A stretch of 21,391 bases of DNA from a virus: the IMG/VR virus record IMGVR_UViG_3300029892_000021, positions 1 to 21,391 of that record. One strand, given 5' to 3'. The position numbers and the translations under genes are program-made. Position 1 is the first letter of the stretch, and every line of letters starts with the position of its first letter. The notes under the pieces were generated by a model that worked only from the letters and a program-made list of their open reading frames with translations, was not told where the DNA came from and searched no databases. Of the stretch, positions 2,124 to 20,317 are shown one piece after another.

Positions 2124-2963
2124 ATGTTATTCGAACCTTACGCATTAAATCGCTTCGGTCTCTATATCCCTGAGCGCATAGCCAGGCAACCAAGGCGACC
2201 AATTGCCATAGACCTGTTCTGTGGTGCCGGCGGCTTTAGCCTGGGCTTTATCCAGGCCGGGTTTGAAGTCGTGGCCGCTCTAGACAACGACTATTACTGC
2301 ATGATGACGTATTTAACCAATCTGGGTAGCTACCCGGTTAACATACACTGGATTGACCCTGCTGACAAAGAAAAAGTCAACGCTAAAATGGAGCGGGACA
2401 TGAAGCGGCAGGCAAAGAACGACATAACTGTGCCCTTTATCAGCGGCAGCGGCTGGATTAAGCATAATCCGCAGTATCCTCCGGTCAGGCATTTCTTCTT
2501 TGGTGACTGTCGTAAAATTACCGGCCAAGAAATACTTGATGCCTCGGGCCTGGGACAAGGCGACGTGGACTGCGTCATGGGCGGGCCTCCCTGCCAGGGG
2601 TTTAGCACTGCCGGCAAGCGCAACGTGATGGACCCGCGCAACAGCCTGGTGTTCGAATTTGCCCGCCTGGTGCTGGAGATACAGCCCAAAACCATGGTTT
2701 TTGAAAATGTTCCCGGGATCCTGAGCATGGTGACGCCGGAGGGGATCCCGGTTGTGGATGCGTTCTGCAAAATACTTTCGGACGGCGGATTCGGGGCTTA
2801 CGACGCGCTGAAACAGTCCCTGCTCATGACGGCAGGAACGGGGGCAGCGCTGAGAGGAAGCAGCAAGAAGCCGAGTAGAAAGGAAATCAGGGAAATGGAA
2901 ACAGGTATTGAGGAAGACGAAGAGGAAAGTGCATCTCAGTTATCGCTGGAAGGGGTTGTTTAG
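2124..2963 (+). CDS. C5-cytosine DNA methyltransferase-like protein lacking C-terminal motifs
   Basis: This 279-residue protein has the N-terminal half of a C5-cytosine DNA methyltransferase: motif I 'DLFCGAGGFSLGF' (S-adenosylmethionine binding), the following acidic strand 'VVAALDND', motif IV 'GGPPCQGFS' with the catalytic Cys at about residue 157, and motif VI 'FENVPGI'. After motif VI the protein ends in a short charged tail. I see no motif VIII (QxRxR), no target recognition domain, and no motifs IX or X. The family normally has 320 or more residues. The reading frame is intact, so this is either a truncated enzyme or a reduced phage subfamily that works with another subunit. The start is supported by AGGAG at 2111-2115. 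It is followed immediately by a deoxyribosyltransferase-like gene. Confidence 0.85.
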   Translation: MLFEPYALNRFGLYIPERIARQPRRPIAIDLFCGAGGFSLGFIQAGFEVVAALDNDYYCMMTYLTNLGSYPVNIHWIDPADKEKVNAKMERDMKRQAKNDITVPFISGSGWIKHNPQYPPVRHFFFGDCRKITGQEILDASGLGQGDVDCVMGGPPCQGFSTAGKRNVMDPRNSLVFEFARLVLEIQPKTMVFENVPGILSMVTPEGIPVVDAFCKILSDGGFGAYDALKQSLLMTAGTGAALRGSSKKPSRKEIREMETGIEEDEEESASQLSLEGVV

Positions 2964-4450: not shown

Positions 4451-5822
4451 AAAAGACATCAAGAAAGTCTTAGACCGAGCCAAAAAGGACCCGGTCTTTT
4501 TTATTACTCAGGTACTAGGTGGCGACCCGTGGGAGAGGCAAAAAGAGATACTTACTGCAGTAAAAAAACACAGGCGCATGGCTGTTCGGGCCTGCCACGG
4601 TGTGGGGAAAACAAAGGTGGCGGCATGGGCGGCGCTGTGGTTTCTTTATTGTCACAAGAACAGCAAAGTCATCACCACTGCTCCTACGTGGCACCAGGTA
4701 GAAAACTTGCTCTGGCGAGAGATAGTGGCTGCACATGCGGCTTCTAAATATCCGCTTGGGGGTAAGGTTCTACAAACGCAGATTGAGCTCGGAAAGCAGT
4801 GGTTTGCCCTTGGGTTGTCTACGGACAAACCGGAACGCTTCCAAGGATTCCACGCAGAGCATATATTGCTCATAGTAGACGAGGCCAGTGGCGTGGAGCA
4901 GCGCATCTTCGATGCTGGGGAAGGTTTTCTTACCAGCCCAGGAGCAAAGCTTTTGCTGGTGGGGAACCCGACACAGCTTTCTGGTGAATTTTATAATGCC
5001 TTTCGGTCGCCCCTGTACCACAAGATACACATTAGTGCGTTCGATAGTCCTAATCTTAAGACTGGGAAGATTATCCGGCCTTATTTAGTTACCCCGGAAT
5101 GGGTAGAAGAGAAGCGGCTCAAGTGGGGAGAAGAAAGTCCGCTGTGGTACAGCAAGGTCATGGGAGAATTTCCTGAACAGGGAGATGACACGCTTATCCC
5201 ACTTGCCTGGATCGAAGCGGCACAACAGAAATGGCAAACGATGCCTTCTGGAGAACCGGTAGAGCTCGGTGTAGACGTGGCCAGATTTGGTAGCGACGCC
5301 ACGGTAATTGTGTTGCGCCGAGGCGACAAGGGAGAGGCAATAAATCAAATACGGGGGCAGGACACTATGGCGGTGGCTGGAGCGGTTATTGATGCTTTGA
5401 GGAAAACAGGCGCAAAGACAGCAAAAATAGACGTTGTTGGCATAGGCGCCGGCGTAGTAGACCGGCTTAAAGAGCAACAATATCCAGTGGCCGAGATGAA
5501 CGCTGGGGAGGCGGCACAGAATAAAGAGCGGTTTGTTAACAAGAGGGCCGAATGGTACTGGGCTTTACGTGAAAGGTTTCAGACTGGCGATATTGCTATC
5601 TCCCCGGGTGATGACGAACTGGCTTCTCAGCTCGCAAGTTTGAAGTACAAATTCGACAGCAGGGGCCGCATACAGATTGAAAGCAAAGAAGATATGCGAA
5701 AGCGCGGGTTACCAAGTCCGGATAAGGCAGACGCATTGATGCTGGCCTTTGCTAGAAGCGGTAGTGAAGTCTTATCTGAAGATCTCAAAAACCTTTTCAA
5801 GGAGGCCAGCCTATATGGCTAA
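4431..5822 (+). CDS. terL: Terminase large subunit
   Basis: This is the packaging motor ATPase/nuclease. It shows Walker A 'ACHGVGKT' (residues 54-61), Walker B 'ILLIVDE' (145-151), the coupling motif 'LLVGNPT' (175-181), and an RNase H-like nuclease domain with Asp282 ('VDVARFGSDATVIV'), Asp334 ('KIDVVGIGAGVVDRL') and Asp431/Asp434 ('SPDKADALMLAF'). The length of 463 residues is normal. Three in-frame ATG codons cluster at 4431, 4437 and 4443 and overlap the small subunit's end, so the exact start is uncertain and translation is probably coupled. The nuclease residues appear complete. Confidence 0.95.
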   Translation: MLMRMNKKDIKKVLDRAKKDPVFFITQVLGGDPWERQKEILTAVKKHRRMAVRACHGVGKTKVAAWAALWFLYCHKNSKVITTAPTWHQVENLLWREIVAAHAASKYPLGGKVLQTQIELGKQWFALGLSTDKPERFQGFHAEHILLIVDEASGVEQRIFDAGEGFLTSPGAKLLLVGNPTQLSGEFYNAFRSPLYHKIHISAFDSPNLKTGKIIRPYLVTPEWVEEKRLKWGEESPLWYSKVMGEFPEQGDDTLIPLAWIEAAQQKWQTMPSGEPVELGVDVARFGSDATVIVLRRGDKGEAINQIRGQDTMAVAGAVIDALRKTGAKTAKIDVVGIGAGVVDRLKEQQYPVAEMNAGEAAQNKERFVNKRAEWYWALRERFQTGDIAISPGDDELASQLASLKYKFDSRGRIQIESKEDMRKRGLPSPDKADALMLAFARSGSEVLSEDLKNLFKEASLYG

Positions 5823-7299
5823 ATCAACACTCCGCCGGCAGCCCGGCTTCATACGCCGCATTCTTAGCGCCATCGGCGAGATTTCCGCGCTGCGCAGCCC
5901 CTGGGCTGCCGGATGGGGGTATCAATACATGACGCCGTACCGGCTGGACTCTAGCAGGGTGGACTATGACCTGGCCAGGCAGCTCTACAGGAATACGGCG
6001 GACAAGTACAAACTCGGCGCCGCTTTCGCCAAGCCGGTGATTAACACCACAGCCGGTTTCATGGGGGCGCCGCATTTTACACACACAGACCCCGAGGCCG
6101 ACCAGGCCCTGGAGCAAATTATGACCAGGTGGACTGGCAAGGTGCTGCGTATCAACCGCAATACCTTGCGTGACGGTGACGTGTTCGCACGGATCGTGAG
6201 AGTGCCGGATCGGGTTAATCCGAAGCTGGAGGCCTTCGATTTGACGCTGATACCGCCTGAATGGGTGACGCCGGTTCCGGACCCGCTTACCGGGCAATGG
6301 CTGAAGTTAATCATCCGGCATCCGGTGGCCCTGGTCGATGCTGCCGGGCGCAAGGTGGGCGACTACACGGTAACGGAGATACTGACGCCGAAGGAGCGGA
6401 TAATTGAAGCTGATGCCCATGCACCGACGGAAATCAGGGAGAGAAACGGGACCGAGGCCAATCCCTGGGGCTTCATCCCGGTGGTGCACTTCAAAAACGA
6501 AGCAGAAGAAAACCAGCTTTTCGGCTGCTCCGACCTGGAGCCAGTGGAGCCGTTCATGAAGGCATACCACGATACCTTACTATTTGCCGTCCAGGGGTCG
6601 AAGCTGTTTAGTAGGCCTAAAACCAAGTTTGCCCTGAAAGATGTACAGAAGTTCCTTAAAGATAACTTTGACGAGGCAGAAATAAAGTCCGGCAAGCTCA
6701 AATTCGCGGATAAGGAACTTTTTCTAATGCAGGAAGGCGATGATGTAGCGTTTATCACGGCCGAGAGCGGGCTGGCGGGGATAACGACGCTGCTAGAGTT
6801 CATCTTTATGAATATCGTGGATGTAAGCCAAGTGCCCGAGTTCGCCTTTGGGACGGCGGTGGCCAGCAGCAAGGCCTCTGTATCTGAGCAGATGGTCCCC
6901 CTGTCCCGCAACATCCGGCGTAAGCGGGGGATGTTCGAGGAACCCTACGGCGAGCTGGCCTCTATGTACCTGGCTATGTGGAGCAAGGTTGAAAATAAGC
7001 GGCTGGATACCTACCGGGTGGATATAGGTTGGGATGAACTGTCACCGAAAAATGACAAGGAAACGGCAGACACCATCAAGACCATGGTCGAAGGCCTGGT
7101 TACAGCTATCGAGGGCGGCCTGCTGTCCGTGGATGCCGCAGCGGAGTTCCTGCGCGAGTTCGTGCCGACGGCCTTGCCGTACGCGGATCCTGATGCCGAC
7201 GACGACGAGAGGCGCCGGATTGCGAAATCGTTCCTCTGGCGCAAGCGGATCGAGGACGCTGAAGGGTGGGAGACAGAGGAAGAGCAGGGTGAGCAGTAG
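5815..7299 (+). CDS. Portal protein
   Basis: The start is ATG 5815, six bases after AAGGAGG; it overlaps the terminase stop by eight bases. An upstream in-frame ATG at 5749 lies inside terminase and is unlikely. The 494-residue product has the size and composition of SPP1 gp6-like portals: an N-terminal 'YRNTADKYKLGAAFAKPVINTTAGF' region (shown here in part), a central 'NPWGFIPVVHFKN' clip/wing segment, a 'LAMWSKVENKR' region and an acidic tail. It forms the dodecameric DNA channel that docks terminase and later the connectors. The IsrB element begins a few bases after its stop codon. Confidence 0.88.
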   Translation: MAKSTLRRQPGFIRRILSAIGEISALRSPWAAGWGYQYMTPYRLDSSRVDYDLARQLYRNTADKYKLGAAFAKPVINTTAGFMGAPHFTHTDPEADQALEQIMTRWTGKVLRINRNTLRDGDVFARIVRVPDRVNPKLEAFDLTLIPPEWVTPVPDPLTGQWLKLIIRHPVALVDAAGRKVGDYTVTEILTPKERIIEADAHAPTEIRERNGTEANPWGFIPVVHFKNEAEENQLFGCSDLEPVEPFMKAYHDTLLFAVQGSKLFSRPKTKFALKDVQKFLKDNFDEAEIKSGKLKFADKELFLMQEGDDVAFITAESGLAGITTLLEFIFMNIVDVSQVPEFAFGTAVASSKASVSEQMVPLSRNIRRKRGMFEEPYGELASMYLAMWSKVENKRLDTYRVDIGWDELSPKNDKETADTIKTMVEGLVTAIEGGLLSVDAAAEFLREFVPTALPYADPDADDDERRRIAKSFLWRKRIEDAEGWETEEEQGEQ

Positions 7300-7540
7300 T
7301 CAAGTACCCCTGACTGAAGTCAGGGGCTTGCTGGAGTAGCGCAATGCCATGCGCGAGACGCAAGTTAAACACGAGACTAGGGTGGCCAAGGTCCGGCAGG
7401 GCCGTTTGAAGGCAACTGAACTGACTGAGCGTGGTAGCCCAAAACACAATACGGGTGCTCCCCTAGCCTGTATTCTCTGTGTCAGTCAGCCCCGAAGGGG
7501 ATAATTGCCGCCGAAAGGCGAGAAAAGGAGGTAACTCTCA
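7300..7540 (+). ncRNA. Candidate omega-RNA of the IsrB element
   Basis: The 240 bases before isrB contain no good reading frame but are full of complementary segments. These are: the left-end hairpin; GCGCA/TGCGC (7339-7343/7350-7354); CTAGGG/CCCTAG (7377-7382/7461-7466); CTGACTGA/TCAGTCAG (7421-7428/7482-7489); CCCC-GAA-GGGG (7490-7500); and CGCC-GAAA-GGCG (7509-7520). The third and fourth pairings cross, giving a pseudoknot. Known IscB/IsrB guide RNAs lie directly upstream of the nuclease gene, are about 200-300 nt, contain a pseudoknot, and carry their guide at the 5' end. The guide would then come from sequence at or just left of 7300. Structure was read by eye, not folded. Confidence 0.72.
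7301..7330 (+). repeat. Left-end hairpin of the IsrB element
   Basis: CCCCTGACTGAAGTCAGGGG at 7307-7326 forms a perfect 8-bp stem with a TGAA loop. CAAG (7301-7304) and CTTG (7327-7330) extend it after a TA bulge. The right-end hairpin is the same except for one swapped base pair. Confidence 0.8.
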
Positions 7541-8572
7541 ATGTTATATGTACCTGTAATTAGTAGCACTGGGAAACCATTGATGCCGTGTCATCCGGCA
7601 AGGGCTAGAGAATTAATTCGGAAGGGCCGTGCAGTGCGGCGGTTTAGCCGTGGTATCTTTTACATCCAGCTTTTGGACAGGGAAGACGGTAAAGTACAAG
7701 ATGTTGCTGTCGGTATAGACCCTGGCAGTAAAAAAGAAGCACTAACAGTTAAGTCCGAAGCACATACTTACTTGAATATCCAGGCAGACGCAGTAACCTG
7801 GGTTAAAGGTGCTGTTGAGGTTCGCCGTAATATGCGGCGAGCTAGGCGGTTTCGCAAAACCCCTTGCCGGGCGAACCGAAAAAACCGCTCCATGGGAGGT
7901 ATCTCACCATCAACTAAGGCCCGCTGGCAGTGGAAGCTCAGGCTGTGTCGTTGGTTGGCAAAGCTGTGCCCAATTACGTGCTTTGTAGTTGAGGACATAA
8001 AAGCACATTGCTTTGGTGGACGGCGCTGGAATCGTTCATTTTCACCGTTGCAGGTAGGCAAGGAGTGGTTCTATGGAGAGTTAAGCAAATTGGCGCGGTT
8101 AGAGACGAAGCAAGGCTATGAAACTAAAGAACTACGTGATGCGCAAGGACTGAAGAAGATCGGTAACAAGCAAGCCGAGGTTTTTGAGGCGCATTGTGTG
8201 GACTCCTGGGTGCTTGCAAACTGGTGGACGGGCGGGCATATCAAGCCGGACAATGTGCGTCTTTTGTGCATTACGCCGTTACGTTTCCACCGCAGGCAGT
8301 TACACCGTTTGCAGCCGGAAGCATGCGGAGTTCGCAAACCCTATGGTAGTACGCGTAGCCTTGGGTTTAAGCGCGGAAGTCTGGTCAAGCATGCAAAGTG
8401 GGGACTGGCATATGTCGGCGGCGCGACAAGAGACCGGATCAGCCTGCATTCGATTACAGACGGCAAGCGGCTGTGTCGGAATGCCAGACCGTCCGAAGTC
8501 AAGTTTCTTTCATTCAACTCATGGAGGGCGCGGCTCCTCCCCTGTCTGAAGACAGGGGTTTCCGCCGCGTAG
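7541..8572 (+). CDS. isrB: IsrB-like OMEGA RNA-guided nickase (PLMP + RuvC, no HNH)
   Basis: The 343-residue protein opens with the PLMP domain ('GKPLMPCHPARARELIRKGR'; residues 11-30), diagnostic of the IscB/IsrB/IshB group. RuvC-I follows ('GIDPGSK', Asp60), then an Arg-rich bridge helix (about 94-113), RuvC-II ('FVVEDIKA', Glu151) and RuvC-III ('AHCVDSW', His218 and Asp221). Only about 65 residues separate RuvC-II and RuvC-III, so the HNH domain of IscB is absent. Length and layout match IsrB, known to nick DNA under omega-RNA guidance. All RuvC residues are present, so it is probably active. AAGGAGG precedes the ATG with normal spacing. The last residues ('LPCLKTGVSAA') are encoded by the right-end hairpin. 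Confidence 0.9.
   Translation: MLYVPVISSTGKPLMPCHPARARELIRKGRAVRRFSRGIFYIQLLDREDGKVQDVAVGIDPGSKKEALTVKSEAHTYLNIQADAVTWVKGAVEVRRNMRRARRFRKTPCRANRKNRSMGGISPSTKARWQWKLRLCRWLAKLCPITCFVVEDIKAHCFGGRRWNRSFSPLQVGKEWFYGELSKLARLETKQGYETKELRDAQGLKKIGNKQAEVFEAHCVDSWVLANWWTGGHIKPDNVRLLCITPLRFHRRQLHRLQPEACGVRKPYGSTRSLGFKRGSLVKHAKWGLAYVGGATRDRISLHSITDGKRLCRNARPSEVKFLSFNSWRARLLPCLKTGVSAA
8529..8569 (+). repeat. Right-end hairpin of the IsrB element
   Basis: CCCCTGTCTGAAGACAGGGG at 8539-8558 is a perfect 8-bp stem with a TGAA loop. An outer stem CGCGGC/GCCGCG (8529-8534/8564-8569) encloses it. Compared with the left-end hairpin, an A-T pair is replaced by T-A, keeping the structure. It overlaps the 3' end of isrB. 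Confidence 0.8.
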
Positions 8573-8578
8573 AGTTTT

Positions 8579-10096
8579 ATGGCCATCCGCAGAGACGACA
8601 TTGCCCGGCTTTCGGGCAGCGATGAATACGCAAAGTACCTGCTGCGCGCCCGTAGGCGCTTTGAACAAGGTCAGGCTGCGACATTAAACCAGATTCGTGG
8701 CGTATACCGCCGGGCGGCGGAAGAGATACGCAAGGACATCAATAAGCTAACACCCGGTACGCTGCGGTACGAGCATTTGACAGCCTTGCAGACAAACTTG
8801 GACCGCCGGGCGGCGGAGATGAGCAAGGAGGTCGTGGCTGCGGTACACCAGGGTATCTGGATGGCCAGCACAGCAGGCTCTAGCGGCACTGCTGACGTGG
8901 CGGCTCACATGCTGCAGGGCGCCTTCCCCGCGGCAGATGTCAAGCGGTTGTTCGCCGGTATCAACGAGCGGGCGGTTTTGGCGATGCTGGCCCGGACCCG
9001 GCAGGACGGGTTGAAAATATCTGACCGGGTATGGCGGACCAGCGAACGGGCCCGGAACAGCATACGGATTATCGTTGAAGATGCCGTGGCCCGGGGCCAG
9101 GATGCCAGGACGACTGCGAAGCAGGTGCAGAAGTATTTGCAGCCGGGCGTCTGGACGGCGCATAAGGCCGAGACGAGAAAAAGGCTTGGTGTGCATAAGG
9201 ACGTCAGCTATGAGGCCATGCGCCTGGCCCGTACGGAGATGAACAACGCCTTCCATGAAGGGATGGTGGCGGCAAACCAGCACAGTCCGGGGTATCGGGG
9301 GATATACTGGCGGTTAAGCCTTGGCCGGGTGATGCCTCGTCCCGACGTTTGCGACGATATGGCTGCCAATACGAGCCATGGTGAGCCGGGGTTTTATCCG
9401 AAAGGGTATGAGCCGACTCGCCCACACCCCGCATGCATGTGTGTGACGATAAGTGCCTGGGAAAGTCCCGAGCAGTTCACCGAGCGCCTGCGGGAGTGGA
9501 TGAAAAACCCGGCGTTGCAGCCGGATATCGAAAAGTGGTATAATGAGGATGCAAGGCGGTTCATGGGGCGACCAGTGGCACCGTTAATGCCGACGACGCT
9601 TATTCAAACAGCGCTTCGTGCAAAGGAAGACGAAATCGCAAGATTACCACACGAGAGGATTTATATACTAGACAGACAAGGAAACGTGGTTTTTACTAAA
9701 GATGGAATGGTTAGTCAAATTGGGTTTACCGAAGCGGATATTCGGAGCATAGTGGCTGCCGGTCCAGAGATAGTAGCGACACATAATCATCCTACGGTAG
9801 GAGGGTCTTTCTCCTTGGATGATATACATTTTTCTATTCTAACGAACGTATCTGAAACACGCGCAGTAGGACGAACGTATGTGCACTCGATGCACAGACC
9901 GGAAGCCGGGTGGCCGCAACGGCAAGTAGTGGATGTTGAGTATAGTATTGCGAACAGTGCGGTGGAAAGCGATTTCTGGCAAAAAATTCATGCTGGTCAA
10001 ATGACGCCGGAGGCGGCACAAGCAGAACACCATCACACGGTTTGGACAGCTGTGGCGGAAAGGCTAGGGTTAAATTATGCGCGGGAGGTGCGTTAG
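8579..10096 (+). CDS. MuF/SPP1 gp7-like minor head protein with C-terminal JAMM domain
   Basis: The 505-residue protein has a helical N-terminal region (1-210), then a MuF head-morphogenesis domain at about 215-300 with 'LARTEMNNAFHEGM' and the ending 'HPACMCV'. Such proteins sit inside the capsid near the portal and may be ejected with DNA. From about residue 355 there is a separate domain with 'THNHPTVGGSFSLDDI'. His402, His404, Ser412 and Asp415 fit the JAMM pattern HxH-x7-S-x2-D, and Glu359 is a possible upstream Glu. JAMM enzymes are zinc isopeptidases/proteases. Coding DNA from about 9590 is more AT-rich than the 5' part, suggesting a swapped-in module. The start codon has a poor ribosome binding site because the IsrB element lies directly upstream. 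Confidence 0.85.
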   Translation: MAIRRDDIARLSGSDEYAKYLLRARRRFEQGQAATLNQIRGVYRRAAEEIRKDINKLTPGTLRYEHLTALQTNLDRRAAEMSKEVVAAVHQGIWMASTAGSSGTADVAAHMLQGAFPAADVKRLFAGINERAVLAMLARTRQDGLKISDRVWRTSERARNSIRIIVEDAVARGQDARTTAKQVQKYLQPGVWTAHKAETRKRLGVHKDVSYEAMRLARTEMNNAFHEGMVAANQHSPGYRGIYWRLSLGRVMPRPDVCDDMAANTSHGEPGFYPKGYEPTRPHPACMCVTISAWESPEQFTERLREWMKNPALQPDIEKWYNEDARRFMGRPVAPLMPTTLIQTALRAKEDEIARLPHERIYILDRQGNVVFTKDGMVSQIGFTEADIRSIVAAGPEIVATHNHPTVGGSFSLDDIHFSILTNVSETRAVGRTYVHSMHRPEAGWPQRQVVDVEYSIANSAVESDFWQKIHAGQMTPEAAQAEHHHTVWTAVAERLGLNYAREVR

Positions 10097-16585: not shown

Positions 16586-19500
16586 ATGGCAAGTCTTGGT
16601 ACTATCTGGGCGGAACTCGGGATCCGTCTTGACAAATTTGACAAAGGCATACGCGACGCCGAAGCGAAAATTAAAAAGGCGGAAGAGCGGTTCGAGGGCT
16701 TCCAGAAGGCCGGTGAGCGCCTGGGGGATATAGGCAAAACGCTAACCATGGGGATTACTCTGCCTATCGCAGGGGTTGCTGCTGCCGCCGTCAAGATGAC
16801 CGCTGACTTCGAGCAGGCGATGGCCAATGCTGCATCTGTCTCCGGTGCTACAGCTGAAGAGTTGAAAAAGATGGAGCAGGTGGCCCGCGAGATGGGCGCT
16901 ACTACCGCTTTCAGCGCAAAAGAAGCCGCTGATGCAATGTACTATATGGCCTGCCAACCGCCGGACGAGTTGATTATTACAGGCGAGTATAGGGTAGCTG
17001 AAATAGGTTCGTATCGTGAAAACCATGTTATAGGCAGCGCAGGGCTTCAGCAAAGAGTGCTTAAGCATACACTTCGCCCTTGCACAGAGGGATTCGTGCT
17101 GAAAATAAAGCCATTGTTACAGCCGGCATTTAGGGTTACGCCCAACCACCCCGTTCTGGTTGTTAGGGGCAAACCGTGCAGACCATATCAGCAGCATGGG
17201 GAAAGCAATTCTCCATCATTGTGTAACCCTTCCTGTCGTAAAAAACAAAGGGAGAAGTGCACTAAAAAATACTATGTTAATTACACTCCAGAATTTATAC
17301 CCGCTGGCGACATACAAAAGGGAGATATTCTTTTAATTCCGCGGATTAAAGAAGTTAAAGAGACTCCGTTAATCTGGGAACACAGAACACGCAAAAAACT
17401 GCCTGCAGTCCTGGACAGCGATTTAGCCTATTTTCTGGGCCTTATGACGGGCGACGGATGGGCAGACGACGAAAGGGTATTCTGCGTTTTTAACAATAAG
17501 GACAAGGAATCCAAAGACTGGCTTTGTTCTTATCTGGAGGGCCTTGGCTATTCGGTGCATGAACGGCCACAGATTAATTGCGTCCAAGTGGTGGCATGGA
17601 GCAGGCCTCTTGCTGCGCTCGTTACTGATTGGATTGGCAGAGGTGCTCAGAACAAAAGGATACCCCCGGCAATTTTTAACTCATCTCCAGAAATAGTTAT
17701 CAGCTATCTGAAAGGCTATTTTGCTTCCGATGGATACGTAAGTCATGAAACCGGTGTATTGGCGGCTTCCACAGTTTCGCCGAACATAGCTTATACGATT
17801 AACTACCTTGCCGCAAAGGTCGGAATGGCCTTTTCTATCGGAACAACGAAAGGTTGCCGAAAAGAAATGCCTTCTGGATATTTATCCGACTGTAAACGTA
17901 TTTACACTATCTCGACTACAAATCCCGACTATATCTATACATTAACTGGCATAAAAACAGAAAGGACTCTTCGCTACAACAAATTTTGGTTTGACGAAGA
18001 TTATTTGTACCTGCCCGTTTGGAGCATTCAAAGAGAAGACTATCATGGAATGGTATATAACCTGGAAACAGAAGACCATACTTACTCCACAGGCGTAATA
18101 GTGCATAATTCCGCAGGCTGGAAGGCAAACCAGATGGCAGAAGCTATCAAGCCCACTCTTGATCTGGCCGCCGCCACGCAAAGCGACCTGGCGTTTACAA
18201 CCGATACTGTTATCGCTACGTTGAACCAGTTTGGGCTTCAGGCGCAGGACACCGAGCGCGTGACCAACGTCTTCGCAGCTGCCATTGGCAACAGCCAAGC
18301 CACGATGGACAAACTGGCGTACTCCATGCGCTACGTTGGTCCTGTAGCTCATGCTTTGGGGTACAGTATCGAGGAATCTACAGCGGCGCTGATGGGGCTG
18401 TATGATGCCGGCTTCAAGGGTGAACAGGCAGGCACGGTACTACGCGGGGCATTGTCTCGTCTCATGGACCCCTCGGAGGATGTGGTAGAAGCACTTACGT
18501 CCCTTGGCCTGAAAGTTGAGGACGTGAACCCACAAGTCCACAGCCTGGCCGACATCATCGACAAACTGAAGAGCAGGAACATCGACGCGGCGACAGCAGT
18601 CCAGCTTTTTGGCCAGGAGGCAGGCCCTGGTATGCTGGCCTTAATTGCCCAAGGCGGTAATGCTCTTCGGCAGTACGAAGCGACAATCACCGGCACACAG
18701 GCGGCAATAGCGATGGCGGAGAAGCAGCTAGACACCTTCGCCGGGCAGATGAAGATCCTCTGGTCGGCAATCAGCGAGGTAGCCATACAGCTGGGGCAGA
18801 TACTTATCCCTGTCCTGCGCGACCTGGTGGAAAAGTACGTCATGCCTGCCGTGCAGTGGTTTTCAAATTTGGATGAAGGAACTAAGAAAATCATTATTAC
18901 GGTTGCACTATTAGCTGCAGCTATCGGCCCGCTGCTGGTTGTGTTTGGGGTGTTGTTCGGAGCGGTGGCGCAAATCGCAGCAGGGATAGCAGCCCTCAAG
19001 GGGGCCTTGCTGGTGGTAAAAGGAGCGTTTTTAGTACTCACCGGCCCCATCGGGCTTATTATTGCTGCAGTTGCTGCGTTAGCTGTCGGGGCATATTCCC
19101 TGATCAAGCATTGGGATGCTGTGAAAGAATTTTTCGTAGGACTATGGGAGACAGTAAAAGGCACATTCTTGGCAGCCTGGGAGTGGATTAAGCAGGTATT
19201 CCTTGATTATCACCCCGTTGGCCTGGTAATCAAGCATTGGGATATCGTGAGTGGGTTTTTTATTAATTTGTGGGAGACCGTTAAACAGATATTTGTAACC
19301 GCGTTGAATACAATTATAGACTTTTTCGGAGGCTTACCTGCAAGAATCAGTGAAGTGTTGGCGGAGGCAGGTGCATGGCTTTCAAAGTTTTTCATCGAGG
19401 ACTTACCTTACTGGACAGGTTATGCTGTCGGCGCACTAATCCGCTTCTTCCTCGACCTGCCTGGAAATATTTGGGATGGGTTGAAGCTGGCGGCAGGAAA

Positions 19501-20317
19501 GATGACGGAATGGTCGGTCATTGCCTGGAACTGGGCGAAGGATACCGGGTCCAGGCTCGTTGCTGATTTTATTGATTGGGTTCGACAGTTGCCCGACAGA
19601 GTGTGGGAATGGCTTGTGAATACGGTAGTTCGGCTGCGTCAGTTTACTGCAGAGGCCAGGGAAAGGACAATTGAAGCTGGGCGGAGCATTCTCGAAAATG
19701 TGATCACGTTTGTCCGTGAGCTACCGGGGCGCATTTGGGATTGGCTGCTCCGGACAGCAGAACGGGTTACATCCTTTGCATTAGAAGCCAGGACGAGGGC
19801 TATCAGCGCAGGGATGAATATAGTAACCGGCATTATGGATACCATCCGCAGCCTGCCGGGAGAAGTCTGGAATATCTTAACGCAAACAGCACAAAGACTG
19901 CTTGACATCGGGGGCACCCTTTGGCGCAACGCCAGGGAAGCGGCTAATAACCTGTGGAATGGATTTAAAAGGGGACTTGGCATTGCTTCTCCATCCTACA
20001 TCGAAAAGGCTTTAGAAAGAATTATAGAGAGTTCCAGGGAGGCGCTAGATAAACTAAAAAAAGATTTTTCTGCACTGTCCCGCCTTAAAGCAGAGCCTCA
20101 AATCACACTGGGAGTATTTCCTGTTCCGGTATATGCTGGCGCTGGATTGACCCCACGGCAGGTTATGGCCGGCGCAGCGCCGCCAGTCATAGAAAGGGGC
20201 CGCACGATTCAAATCAACGGCCCGCTGTTTAATGTTGAGAACCAGGTATTGTCTGATGAAGTTGACGCTGAAATAGTTTTCCGTGAACTAAGACGGCAGA
20301 TTGCAACTGTCTTTTGA
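16586..20317 (+). CDS. Tail tape measure protein with intein (857-residue mature exteins)
   Basis: The precursor is 1,243 residues. The N-extein has a coiled coil (about 15-50), then a TP901-type tape measure domain ending 'KEAADAMYYMA' at residue 122. An intein occupies 123-508. The C-extein restarts with 'SAGWKANQMAEAIK', so splicing restores the conserved 'YYMASAGW' motif. Hydrophobic segments lie at about 769-842, typical of tape measure proteins that insert in the membrane. Four repeats of 44 residues beginning 'LPG/D-x-W' start at 958, 1002, 1046 and 1090. The ATG follows AGGGGGGTC. The protein sets tail length and forms the DNA channel during infection. Confidence 0.93.
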   Translation: MASLGTIWAELGIRLDKFDKGIRDAEAKIKKAEERFEGFQKAGERLGDIGKTLTMGITLPIAGVAAAAVKMTADFEQAMANAASVSGATAEELKKMEQVAREMGATTAFSAKEAADAMYYMACQPPDELIITGEYRVAEIGSYRENHVIGSAGLQQRVLKHTLRPCTEGFVLKIKPLLQPAFRVTPNHPVLVVRGKPCRPYQQHGESNSPSLCNPSCRKKQREKCTKKYYVNYTPEFIPAGDIQKGDILLIPRIKEVKETPLIWEHRTRKKLPAVLDSDLAYFLGLMTGDGWADDERVFCVFNNKDKESKDWLCSYLEGLGYSVHERPQINCVQVVAWSRPLAALVTDWIGRGAQNKRIPPAIFNSSPEIVISYLKGYFASDGYVSHETGVLAASTVSPNIAYTINYLAAKVGMAFSIGTTKGCRKEMPSGYLSDCKRIYTISTTNPDYIYTLTGIKTERTLRYNKFWFDEDYLYLPVWSIQREDYHGMVYNLETEDHTYSTGVIVHNSAGWKANQMAEAIKPTLDLAAATQSDLAFTTDTVIATLNQFGLQAQDTERVTNVFAAAIGNSQATMDKLAYSMRYVGPVAHALGYSIEESTAALMGLYDAGFKGEQAGTVLRGALSRLMDPSEDVVEALTSLGLKVEDVNPQVHSLADIIDKLKSRNIDAATAVQLFGQEAGPGMLALIAQGGNALRQYEATITGTQAAIAMAEKQLDTFAGQMKILWSAISEVAIQLGQILIPVLRDLVEKYVMPAVQWFSNLDEGTKKIIITVALLAAAIGPLLVVFGVLFGAVAQIAAGIAALKGALLVVKGAFLVLTGPIGLIIAAVAALAVGAYSLIKHWDAVKEFFVGLWETVKGTFLAAWEWIKQVFLDYHPVGLVIKHWDIVSGFFINLWETVKQIFVTALNTIIDFFGGLPARISEVLAEAGAWLSKFFIEDLPYWTGYAVGALIRFFLDLPGNIWDGLKLAAGKMTEWSVIAWNWAKDTGSRLVADFIDWVRQLPDRVWEWLVNTVVRLRQFTAEARERTIEAGRSILENVITFVRELPGRIWDWLLRTAERVTSFALEARTRAISAGMNIVTGIMDTIRSLPGEVWNILTQTAQRLLDIGGTLWRNAREAANNLWNGFKRGLGIASPSYIEKALERIIESSREALDKLKKDFSALSRLKAEPQITLGVFPVPVYAGAGLTPRQVMAGAAPPVIERGRTIQINGPLFNVENQVLSDEVDAEIVFRELRRQIATVF
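16952..18109 (+). mobile_element. LAGLIDADG homing-endonuclease intein in tape measure gene
   Basis: The intein spans 386 codons. It starts with Cys123 ('CQPPDELIITGEYRVAEIG', block A). Block B is 'RVTPNHPVLVV' (His188). Two LAGLIDADG motifs follow: 'LAYFLGLMTGDG' (280-291) and 'VISYLKGYFASDG' (371-383). It ends with block F 'YHGMVYNLETEDHTYSTGV' and block G 'VHN' plus Ser509 as the +1 nucleophile. All splicing residues are present, so it is probably active for splicing and homing. Its DNA is more AT-rich than the exteins. A Cys cluster (198, 213, 217, 225) lies between the splicing and endonuclease parts. Confidence 0.95.

What the first reader, a model, noticed from the sequence alone, without database searches (positions are those of the whole stretch)
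7300..8576. Transposase-less IsrB (OMEGA nickase) element lodged precisely between portal and MuF genes of a phage
The protein has the PLMP domain and a complete RuvC (Asp60, Glu151, His218/Asp221) with no HNH insertion, the layout of IsrB. IsrB is the rarer relative of IscB and an ancestor-like form of Cas9. Here it is in the core head-gene operon of a phage, between two essential genes, without breaking either. It has no tnpA, so it depends on a partner or is kept for another benefit.
Basis: partly seen in the sequence, partly recalled or inferred. Interest (0 to 1): 0.8.

Follow-up and report, generated by a model that had tools for sequence, protein, structure and literature searches.

The report
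IsrB element inserted at start codon
A small mobile element that encodes an RNA-guided DNA-nicking enzyme of the family ancestral to Cas9 has landed exactly on the start codon of a phage head gene, and about 80 relatives in other phages and bacteria show that sitting immediately in front of start codons is its general habit, which explains how it can sit between essential genes without breaking them.

Summary
Confirmed, with sharper boundaries. The window is an IMG/VR phage fragment. ORF 7541-8572 encodes a full-length IsrB (best PDB match DtIsrB by sequence and fold; RuvC D60, E151, H218, D221 invariant; no HNH). The element runs 7299-8578: conserved GTCAA left end, a covarying omega-RNA, and two subterminal hairpins. 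About 80 related portal-MuF junctions lack IsrB, so it is a recent insertion; one holds an unrelated homing endonuclease. The reconstructed empty site is GAGCAGTA|ATGGCC: the element's first G rebuilds the portal stop and its right end abuts the MuF ATG.

New point: about 84 relatives in phages, Chloroflexota and cyanobacteria end at ATGA or ATGG, mostly a real start codon, separating ribosome-binding site from ATG. This matches published NTG/NTGA/NTGG TAMs. The TAM-reading residue (Q, or R/K) covaries with the fourth base (A, or G), and so does a base beside the right-end hairpin. In phages IsrB usually stops within 8 nt of the next ATG, suggesting translational coupling.

Best reading: a transposase-less IS200/IS605-like OMEGA element, moved in trans to new start codons and kept by RNA-guided nicking of empty junctions. 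Movement and nicking are inferred. New member of a known kind; the start-codon rule may be new.

The parts
5749..7299 (+). portal protein gene (SPP1 Gp6-like); its stop codon TAG is TA of the flank plus the first G of the element
   Evidence: PF05133 E 3e-16; empty-site comparison
7279..7298 (+). left flank that would supply the omega-RNA guide (3' end of portal, includes GGTGA, the likely original MuF ribosome-binding site)
   Evidence: sequence; the guide being the 5' flank follows from published IscB/IsrB biology; length 16-20 nt inferred
7299..7299 (+). first base of the element (GTCAAG left end)
   Evidence: conserved GTCA[A/C] at the left end of relatives; HEARO model starts here
7299..7540 (+). 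omega-RNA scaffold region
   Evidence: RF02033 HEARO below gathering score, E 0.001; 18-sequence alignment, 40 pairs, 29 with compensatory changes
7307..7326 (+). left-end subterminal hairpin CCCCTGAC-TGAA-GTCAGGGG
   Evidence: z -4.8; covarying in relatives
7541..8572 (+). isrB, RNA-guided nickase, 343 aa; its 3' end runs through the right-end hairpin
8539..8558 (+). right-end subterminal hairpin CCCCTGTC-TGAA-GACAGGGG
   Evidence: z -4.5; same position in relatives
8559..8578 (+). right end after the hairpin (TTTCCGCCGCGTAGAGTTTT); holds the IsrB stop TAG, 6 nt before the MuF ATG
   Evidence: distance distribution
8579..8582 (+). ATGG: inferred target-adjacent motif, which is the start codon of MuF plus one base
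   Evidence: right-flank table; published NTG/NTGG TAMs (PMC9581776)
8579..10096 (+). MuF/head morphogenesis protein gene
   Evidence: PHROG 1657 E 3.7e-79

Best explanation
This is a complete IsrB OMEGA element (left end, omega-RNA, isrB, right end) that inserted precisely between the ribosome-binding site and the start codon of the phage MuF gene, at an ancestral portal-stop/MuF-start overlap ...TA|ATGG. [Shown by comparison] No target bases were lost: the element's first G restores the portal stop (TAG) and its right end leaves the MuF ATG intact. [Inferred] Because the original ribosome-binding site is now 1.28 kb away, MuF is translated by restart from the IsrB stop codon 6 nt upstream. 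[Inferred from published biochemistry of relatives] IsrB uses an omega-RNA whose guide is the portal 3' end, finds that sequence followed by the start codon ATGG (TAM) in phages lacking the element, and nicks them. The occupied locus is immune because GTCA follows the guide match. This favours copying of the element into co-infecting relatives by recombination, as nicking homing endonucleases do. [Inferred] Jumps to new start codons need a Y1 (TnpA-type) transposase acting in trans on the two hairpin ends.
For: IsrB identity. Omega-RNA with 29 compensatory pairs. Empty sites in related phages, many with TAATG or TGATG overlaps. Right flank ATGA/ATGG in about 84 relatives. TAM residue versus fourth base: Q-A 72, Q-G 1, R/K-G 9, R/K-A 2, Fisher p 1.5e-9; window R313 with ATGG, its sisters L002, L003, L030 Q with ATGA. 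Start codons: viral loci 18 of 21 against 8.6% of all ATG[A/G] and 39% of non-disruptive ones. Left flank carries a Shine-Dalgarno match in 17 of 22 viral loci against 3 of 22 further upstream; IsrB stop lies within 8 nt of the next ATG in 14 of 22. In cultured phage Ma-LMM01 the IsrB homologue gp171 abuts the annotated start codon of gp170 exactly. Downstream proteins align to family profiles from their first residues. Same elements occur in contigs with no detectable match to the window's portal or terminase. A different endonuclease gene occupies the same junction in L039.
Against: No activity was tested. No phage was found whose junction matches the window's guide exactly (the 15-mer hits are not portal junctions), so homing to a real present-day target is not shown. 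IsrB nicks rather than cuts, so efficiency of homing is uncertain. The window's right-end base (T) predicts ATGA, yet the flank is ATGG: either the flank changed after insertion or the element did not arrive by TnpA pairing. About four in ten cyanobacterial copies are not at recognisable long genes.
Confidence: 0.78

Rival explanations
1. A passive transposon passenger: the element was put there once by a TnpA in trans, and IsrB plays no homing role in the phage; position at the start codon only reflects TnpA target choice plus purifying selection against gene damage.
For: Ends look like IS200/IS605 ends and a base next to the right hairpin covaries with the flank (T with ATGA 36, C with ATGG 5), which is a transposase-side signal independent of IsrB. 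Selection for non-disruption explains part of the start-codon excess (39% of harmless viral sites are starts).
Against: The IsrB TAM residue also tracks the flank, including L016, L017 and L027 where no right-end hairpin of the usual kind could be found (R with ATGG), and in the window itself where the transposon-end base does not match but R313 does. RuvC residues are all kept. Start-codon excess remains after restricting to harmless sites (p 1e-5 viral, 3e-12 cyanobacterial).
Confidence: 0.3
2. A phage-domesticated gene kept for its own benefit, for example a regulator of the portal/MuF operon or a weapon against co-infecting phages (marker exclusion), no longer mobile.
For: Guide and TAM coincide with ribosome-binding site and start codon, the place where a repressor would bind; phage-encoded TnpB-derived RNA-guided repressors exist (TldR, PMC13418256, seen only as a search result). 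Some relatives (L016, L017, L027) seem to have lost the right end.
Against: Catalytic residues intact; both ends intact in the window; none of about 80 related junctions carries it; its sister elements sit at other genes in contigs without detectable match to the window's portal or terminase.
Confidence: 0.12
3. Chance or artefact: a misassembly or a random ORF resembling IsrB.
For: Single metagenomic contig.
Against: Full-length homology, covarying RNA, matching ends, and an 87% identical independent copy L002; base composition continuous with the phage.
Confidence: 0.02

Closest known systems
IsrB of Desulfovirgula thermocuniculi (DtIsrB, PDB 8dmb) and its omega-RNA
   Same: Domain order PLMP, RuvC without HNH, bridge helix, C-terminal TAM-reading domain; upstream omega-RNA; NTG(A) TAM (PMC9581776)
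   Different: About 31% identical by structure alignment; the window has R at the position of DtIsrB Q326 and sits at ATGG; carried by a phage at a start codon
K2IsrB and BbIsrB (PMC9581776)
   Same: NTG and NTGG TAMs; K2IsrB came from a viral metagenome
   Different: Sequences were not compared here; the paper text contains no mention of start codons
HEARO RNA (RF02033) / IscB-HEARO systems
   Same: RNA upstream of the ORF, same 5' start GUCAAC and 5' hairpin; over 16% of HEARO fragments reported viral or prophage-derived (PMC9755519)
   Different: Those nucleases have HNH; the window RNA scores below the Rfam gathering cut-off
IS200/IS605 family ends (IS608, ISDra2)
   Same: Subterminal imperfect hairpins, no target duplication, fixed short target motif next to one end, a base beside the hairpin that pairs with the target (inferred; the comparison itself is from memory)
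   Different: No tnpA in the element or record
Free-standing homing endonucleases of phages
   Same: Sit between essential genes without breaking them; relatives with empty sites; L039 carries a NUMOD3/DUF559 endonuclease at this very junction
   Different: Site recognition is by RNA guide plus TAM rather than by protein; predicted to nick

Membership tests
IsrB (OMEGA nickase) | Homology to DtIsrB over the whole length, fold included | tested here: met
   E 2.6e-41 residues 3-324; TM 0.76 to 8dmb
IsrB (OMEGA nickase) | PLMP motif, complete RuvC, no HNH insertion | tested here: met
   PLMP at residues 13-16; D60, E151, H218, D221 invariant; 66 residues between RuvC-II and III
IsrB (OMEGA nickase) | Structured omega-RNA directly upstream | tested here: met
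   29 of 40 pairs with compensatory changes; weak HEARO match
IsrB (OMEGA nickase) | NTG-type TAM next to the insertion | tested here: met
   ATGG flank with R313; family-wide table
IsrB (OMEGA nickase) | RNA-guided nicking activity | not testable with these tools
   needs purified RNP
IscB | HNH domain inserted in RuvC; NF040563 above cut-off | tested here: not met
   NF040563 101.6 bits against cut-off 175, N-terminal half only
IS200/IS605-type transposable element | Subterminal hairpins at both ends, insertion without target duplication | tested here: met
IS200/IS605-type transposable element | Y1 transposase encoded in the element | tested here: not met
   PF01797 absent from the record
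IS200/IS605-type transposable element | Mobilised in trans by a Y1 transposase | not testable with these tools
   host unknown; two Chloroflexota MAGs with three copies and one copy show no PF01797, but MAGs may be incomplete
Homing element (functional likeness) | Empty alleles in relatives at the recognised site | tested here: met
   about 80 related junctions without IsrB
Homing element (functional likeness) | Guide matches an existing empty site | tested here: inconclusive
   no close enough relative found

The most novel reading that the evidence does not exclude
This IsrB lineage is a start-codon parasite: its TAM is the start codon itself and its guide is the ribosome-binding region, so that every insertion displaces a gene's ribosome-binding site and the element supplies translation restart in its place (IsrB stop codon next to the ATG, or a Shine-Dalgarno in its right end). 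In phages it spreads between co-infecting relatives by RNA-guided homing, without any transposase of its own.
Probability: 0.4. Interest if true: 0.8.

Novelty: new member of a known kind. Interest (0 to 1): 0.62.

Why it matters
IsrB is regarded as close to the ancestor of Cas9, and why these nucleases recognise NTG motifs and how transposase-less copies persist are open questions. If the TAM is the start codon, the motif has a biological reason: it is the one place in a packed genome where an insertion upstream of an intact gene is tolerated. The covariation of protein residue, transposon-end base and flank gives a way to predict the TAM of an IsrB from sequence alone, and the phage system offers a simple test of RNA-guided homing.

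Tried and rejected
Rfam at gathering threshold found nothing in the window or in 14 relatives; only the permissive search showed HEARO. A 15-mer spanning the reconstructed empty site found 55 viral stretches, none of them a portal junction, so chance. The exact left end of the window element is in no other viral contig. blastn of the head genes against cultured phages found nothing. My first automatic detectors of the right end mis-placed some junctions; those were corrected by reading the sequences, so the final table is partly hand-curated. L115 was dropped from the residue test because only its N-terminal half aligned. In L004 an ATGG lies 11 nt beyond the ATGA used; I counted it as an exception. 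Considered and rejected: IscB (no HNH), random ORF. Papers: no held text was found that states the start-codon rule; the 2009 HEARO paper and the 2021 OMEGA paper could not be read here, and from memory the former mentions ATGA or GTGA at insertion sites, so part of the rule may already be on record.

Full report
WHAT IS THERE. The window is a 21,391-base IMG/VR virus record. It carries a siphophage-like morphogenesis operon: terminase, portal, MuF, capsid-region genes and tape measure. Between portal (ending 7299) and MuF (starting 8579) lies one ORF, 7541-8572, 343 aa. Pfam gives only RRXRR (E 2e-33) and NCBIfam IscB scores below its cut-off. The best solved relative is DtIsrB, aligned over nearly the whole length (E 2.6e-41). 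The AlphaFold2 model is confident (pLDDT 83.7) and matches DtIsrB first (TM 0.76). D60, E151, H218 and D221 are invariant in 32 sequences. There is no HNH.

THE RNA AND THE ENDS. The 242 bases upstream of isrB align across 18 relatives, and the consensus fold has 40 pairs, 29 of them with compensatory changes. Rfam's HEARO model matches weakly but from exactly base 7299. Relatives almost always begin GTCAA or GTCAC, so the element starts at the G that also completes the portal stop codon. Both ends carry a hairpin with 8-bp stems and a TGAA loop. The isrB reading frame runs through the right hairpin and stops 6 nt before the MuF ATG.

EMPTY SITES. About 80 phages with related portals were examined, not all independent of one another, and none has IsrB at this junction. 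In nearly all, portal and MuF abut or overlap, often as TAATG or TGATG. One (L039) holds a 305-aa NUMOD3/DUF559 homing-type endonuclease there instead. One (L198) has about 600 bp of other ORFs. The reconstructed empty site is GAGCAGTA|ATGGCC. The insertion is thus recent, precise and harmless to both reading frames.

THE GENERAL RULE. I collected 33 viral and 71 bacterial loci. Where the right end could be placed, about 84 junctions, the next bases are ATGA or ATGG. In the viral set 18 of 21 scorable ATGs open a reading frame of at least 100 codons with an upstream in-frame stop, against 8.6% of all ATG[A/G] sites in the same contigs. Against only those sites where insertion would not break a gene the figures are 86% against 39% (viral), 69% against 28% (other bacteria) and 58% against 11% (cyanobacteria). 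So avoidance of damage alone does not explain it. The left flanks of viral copies end in a Shine-Dalgarno match in 17 of 22 cases, against 3 of 22 in the stretch just upstream: the element splits ribosome-binding site from ATG. This left-flank signal is not clear in the bacterial sets (8 of 16 against 6; 11 of 38 against 10). Several downstream proteins align to their family profile from residue 2-4 (cysteine desulfurase-like in L061, cold-shock protein in L027, DNA polymerase in L030). In the cultured cyanophage Ma-LMM01 the homologue gp171 ends exactly at the annotated start of gp170.

WHY THIS IS THE TAM. Published assays give NTGA for DtIsrB, NTG for four orthologues and NTGG for one; Q326 of DtIsrB reads the fourth base and Q326R accepts G (PMC9581776). 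At the equivalent position relatives have Q with ATGA in 72 cases and with ATGG in one, R or K with ATGG in nine and with ATGA in two (Fisher p 1.5e-9, not corrected for kinship; the R/K states lie in at least six places of the tree). The window has R313 and ATGG, while its closest kin L002, L003 and L030 have Q and ATGA.

A TRANSPOSASE-SIDE SIGNAL. The base before CC just after the right hairpin is T in 36 ATGA elements and C in five ATGG elements. On the other strand these would pair with the flank (A with T, G with C), like the guide/target pairing of IS200/IS605 ends. That points to a Y1 transposase as the original mover. The window is the one clear mismatch (T with ATGG) among well-placed ends. 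No Y1 transposase is in the record or in 13 of 16 other phage contigs. Two Chloroflexota genomes with three copies and one copy also show none, though they are MAGs.

MECHANISM, WITH STATUS. Shown by sequence: precise insertion at the start codon, intact protein, covarying RNA, intact ends, empty relatives. Following from published biochemistry of relatives: RNA-guided nicking next to NTG(G). Inferred: guide taken from the portal 3' end; nicking of empty junctions in co-infecting phages and copying by recombination; translation of MuF by restart after the IsrB stop (in 14 of 22 viral loci the stop lies within 8 nt of the ATG); transposition to new sites by a transposase in trans.

VERDICT. The element itself is a new member of IsrB. 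The start-codon rule and the double covariation are the interesting part; I found no statement of the rule in the papers I could read, but key papers were not available. Interest 0.62.

Noticed in passing
window 16586-20317: The tape measure gene carries an in-frame intein with a LAGLIDADG endonuclease, so this phage has two unrelated mobile elements in its morphogenesis operon.
   Followed up: partly
L039 3680-4597: A NUMOD3/DUF559 (Vsr-like) homing-type endonuclease occupies the same portal-MuF junction in a related phage: the junction looks like a recurrent landing site.
   Followed up: yes
L016 1190-1206 and around 2450-2480: No usual right-end hairpin was found, and a near copy of the left flank (GGAGCCGACCG / GGAGGCCGACCG) stands before the ATGG start codon, as if the ribosome-binding site had been duplicated.
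   Followed up: partly
L029 upstream of 4551 and downstream of 5830: The interrupted gene's first codons seem to be present twice, left of the element (MPIYQTHD) and right of it in altered form (MTIYQSHD), as if the guide-matching sequence had been recoded.
   Followed up: partly
G019 (Chloroflexi CFX5), loci L055, L057, L106: Three IsrB copies at different ATGA sites in one MAG with no Y1 transposase detected.
   Followed up: partly
window 8579-10096: The MuF protein has an extra C-terminal region with THNHP...SFSLDD, reminiscent of a JAB/RadC-type metal site; the MuF of L039 is only 329 aa long.
   Followed up: no
window 2124-2963: A C5-cytosine methylase ORF of 279 aa that matches only part of the family profile in its best stretch; it may be truncated or rearranged.
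   Followed up: no
L249 1150-1350 (Ma-LMM01): Several copies of the left-end motif GTCACTAACC lie in tandem upstream of gp171.
   Followed up: no
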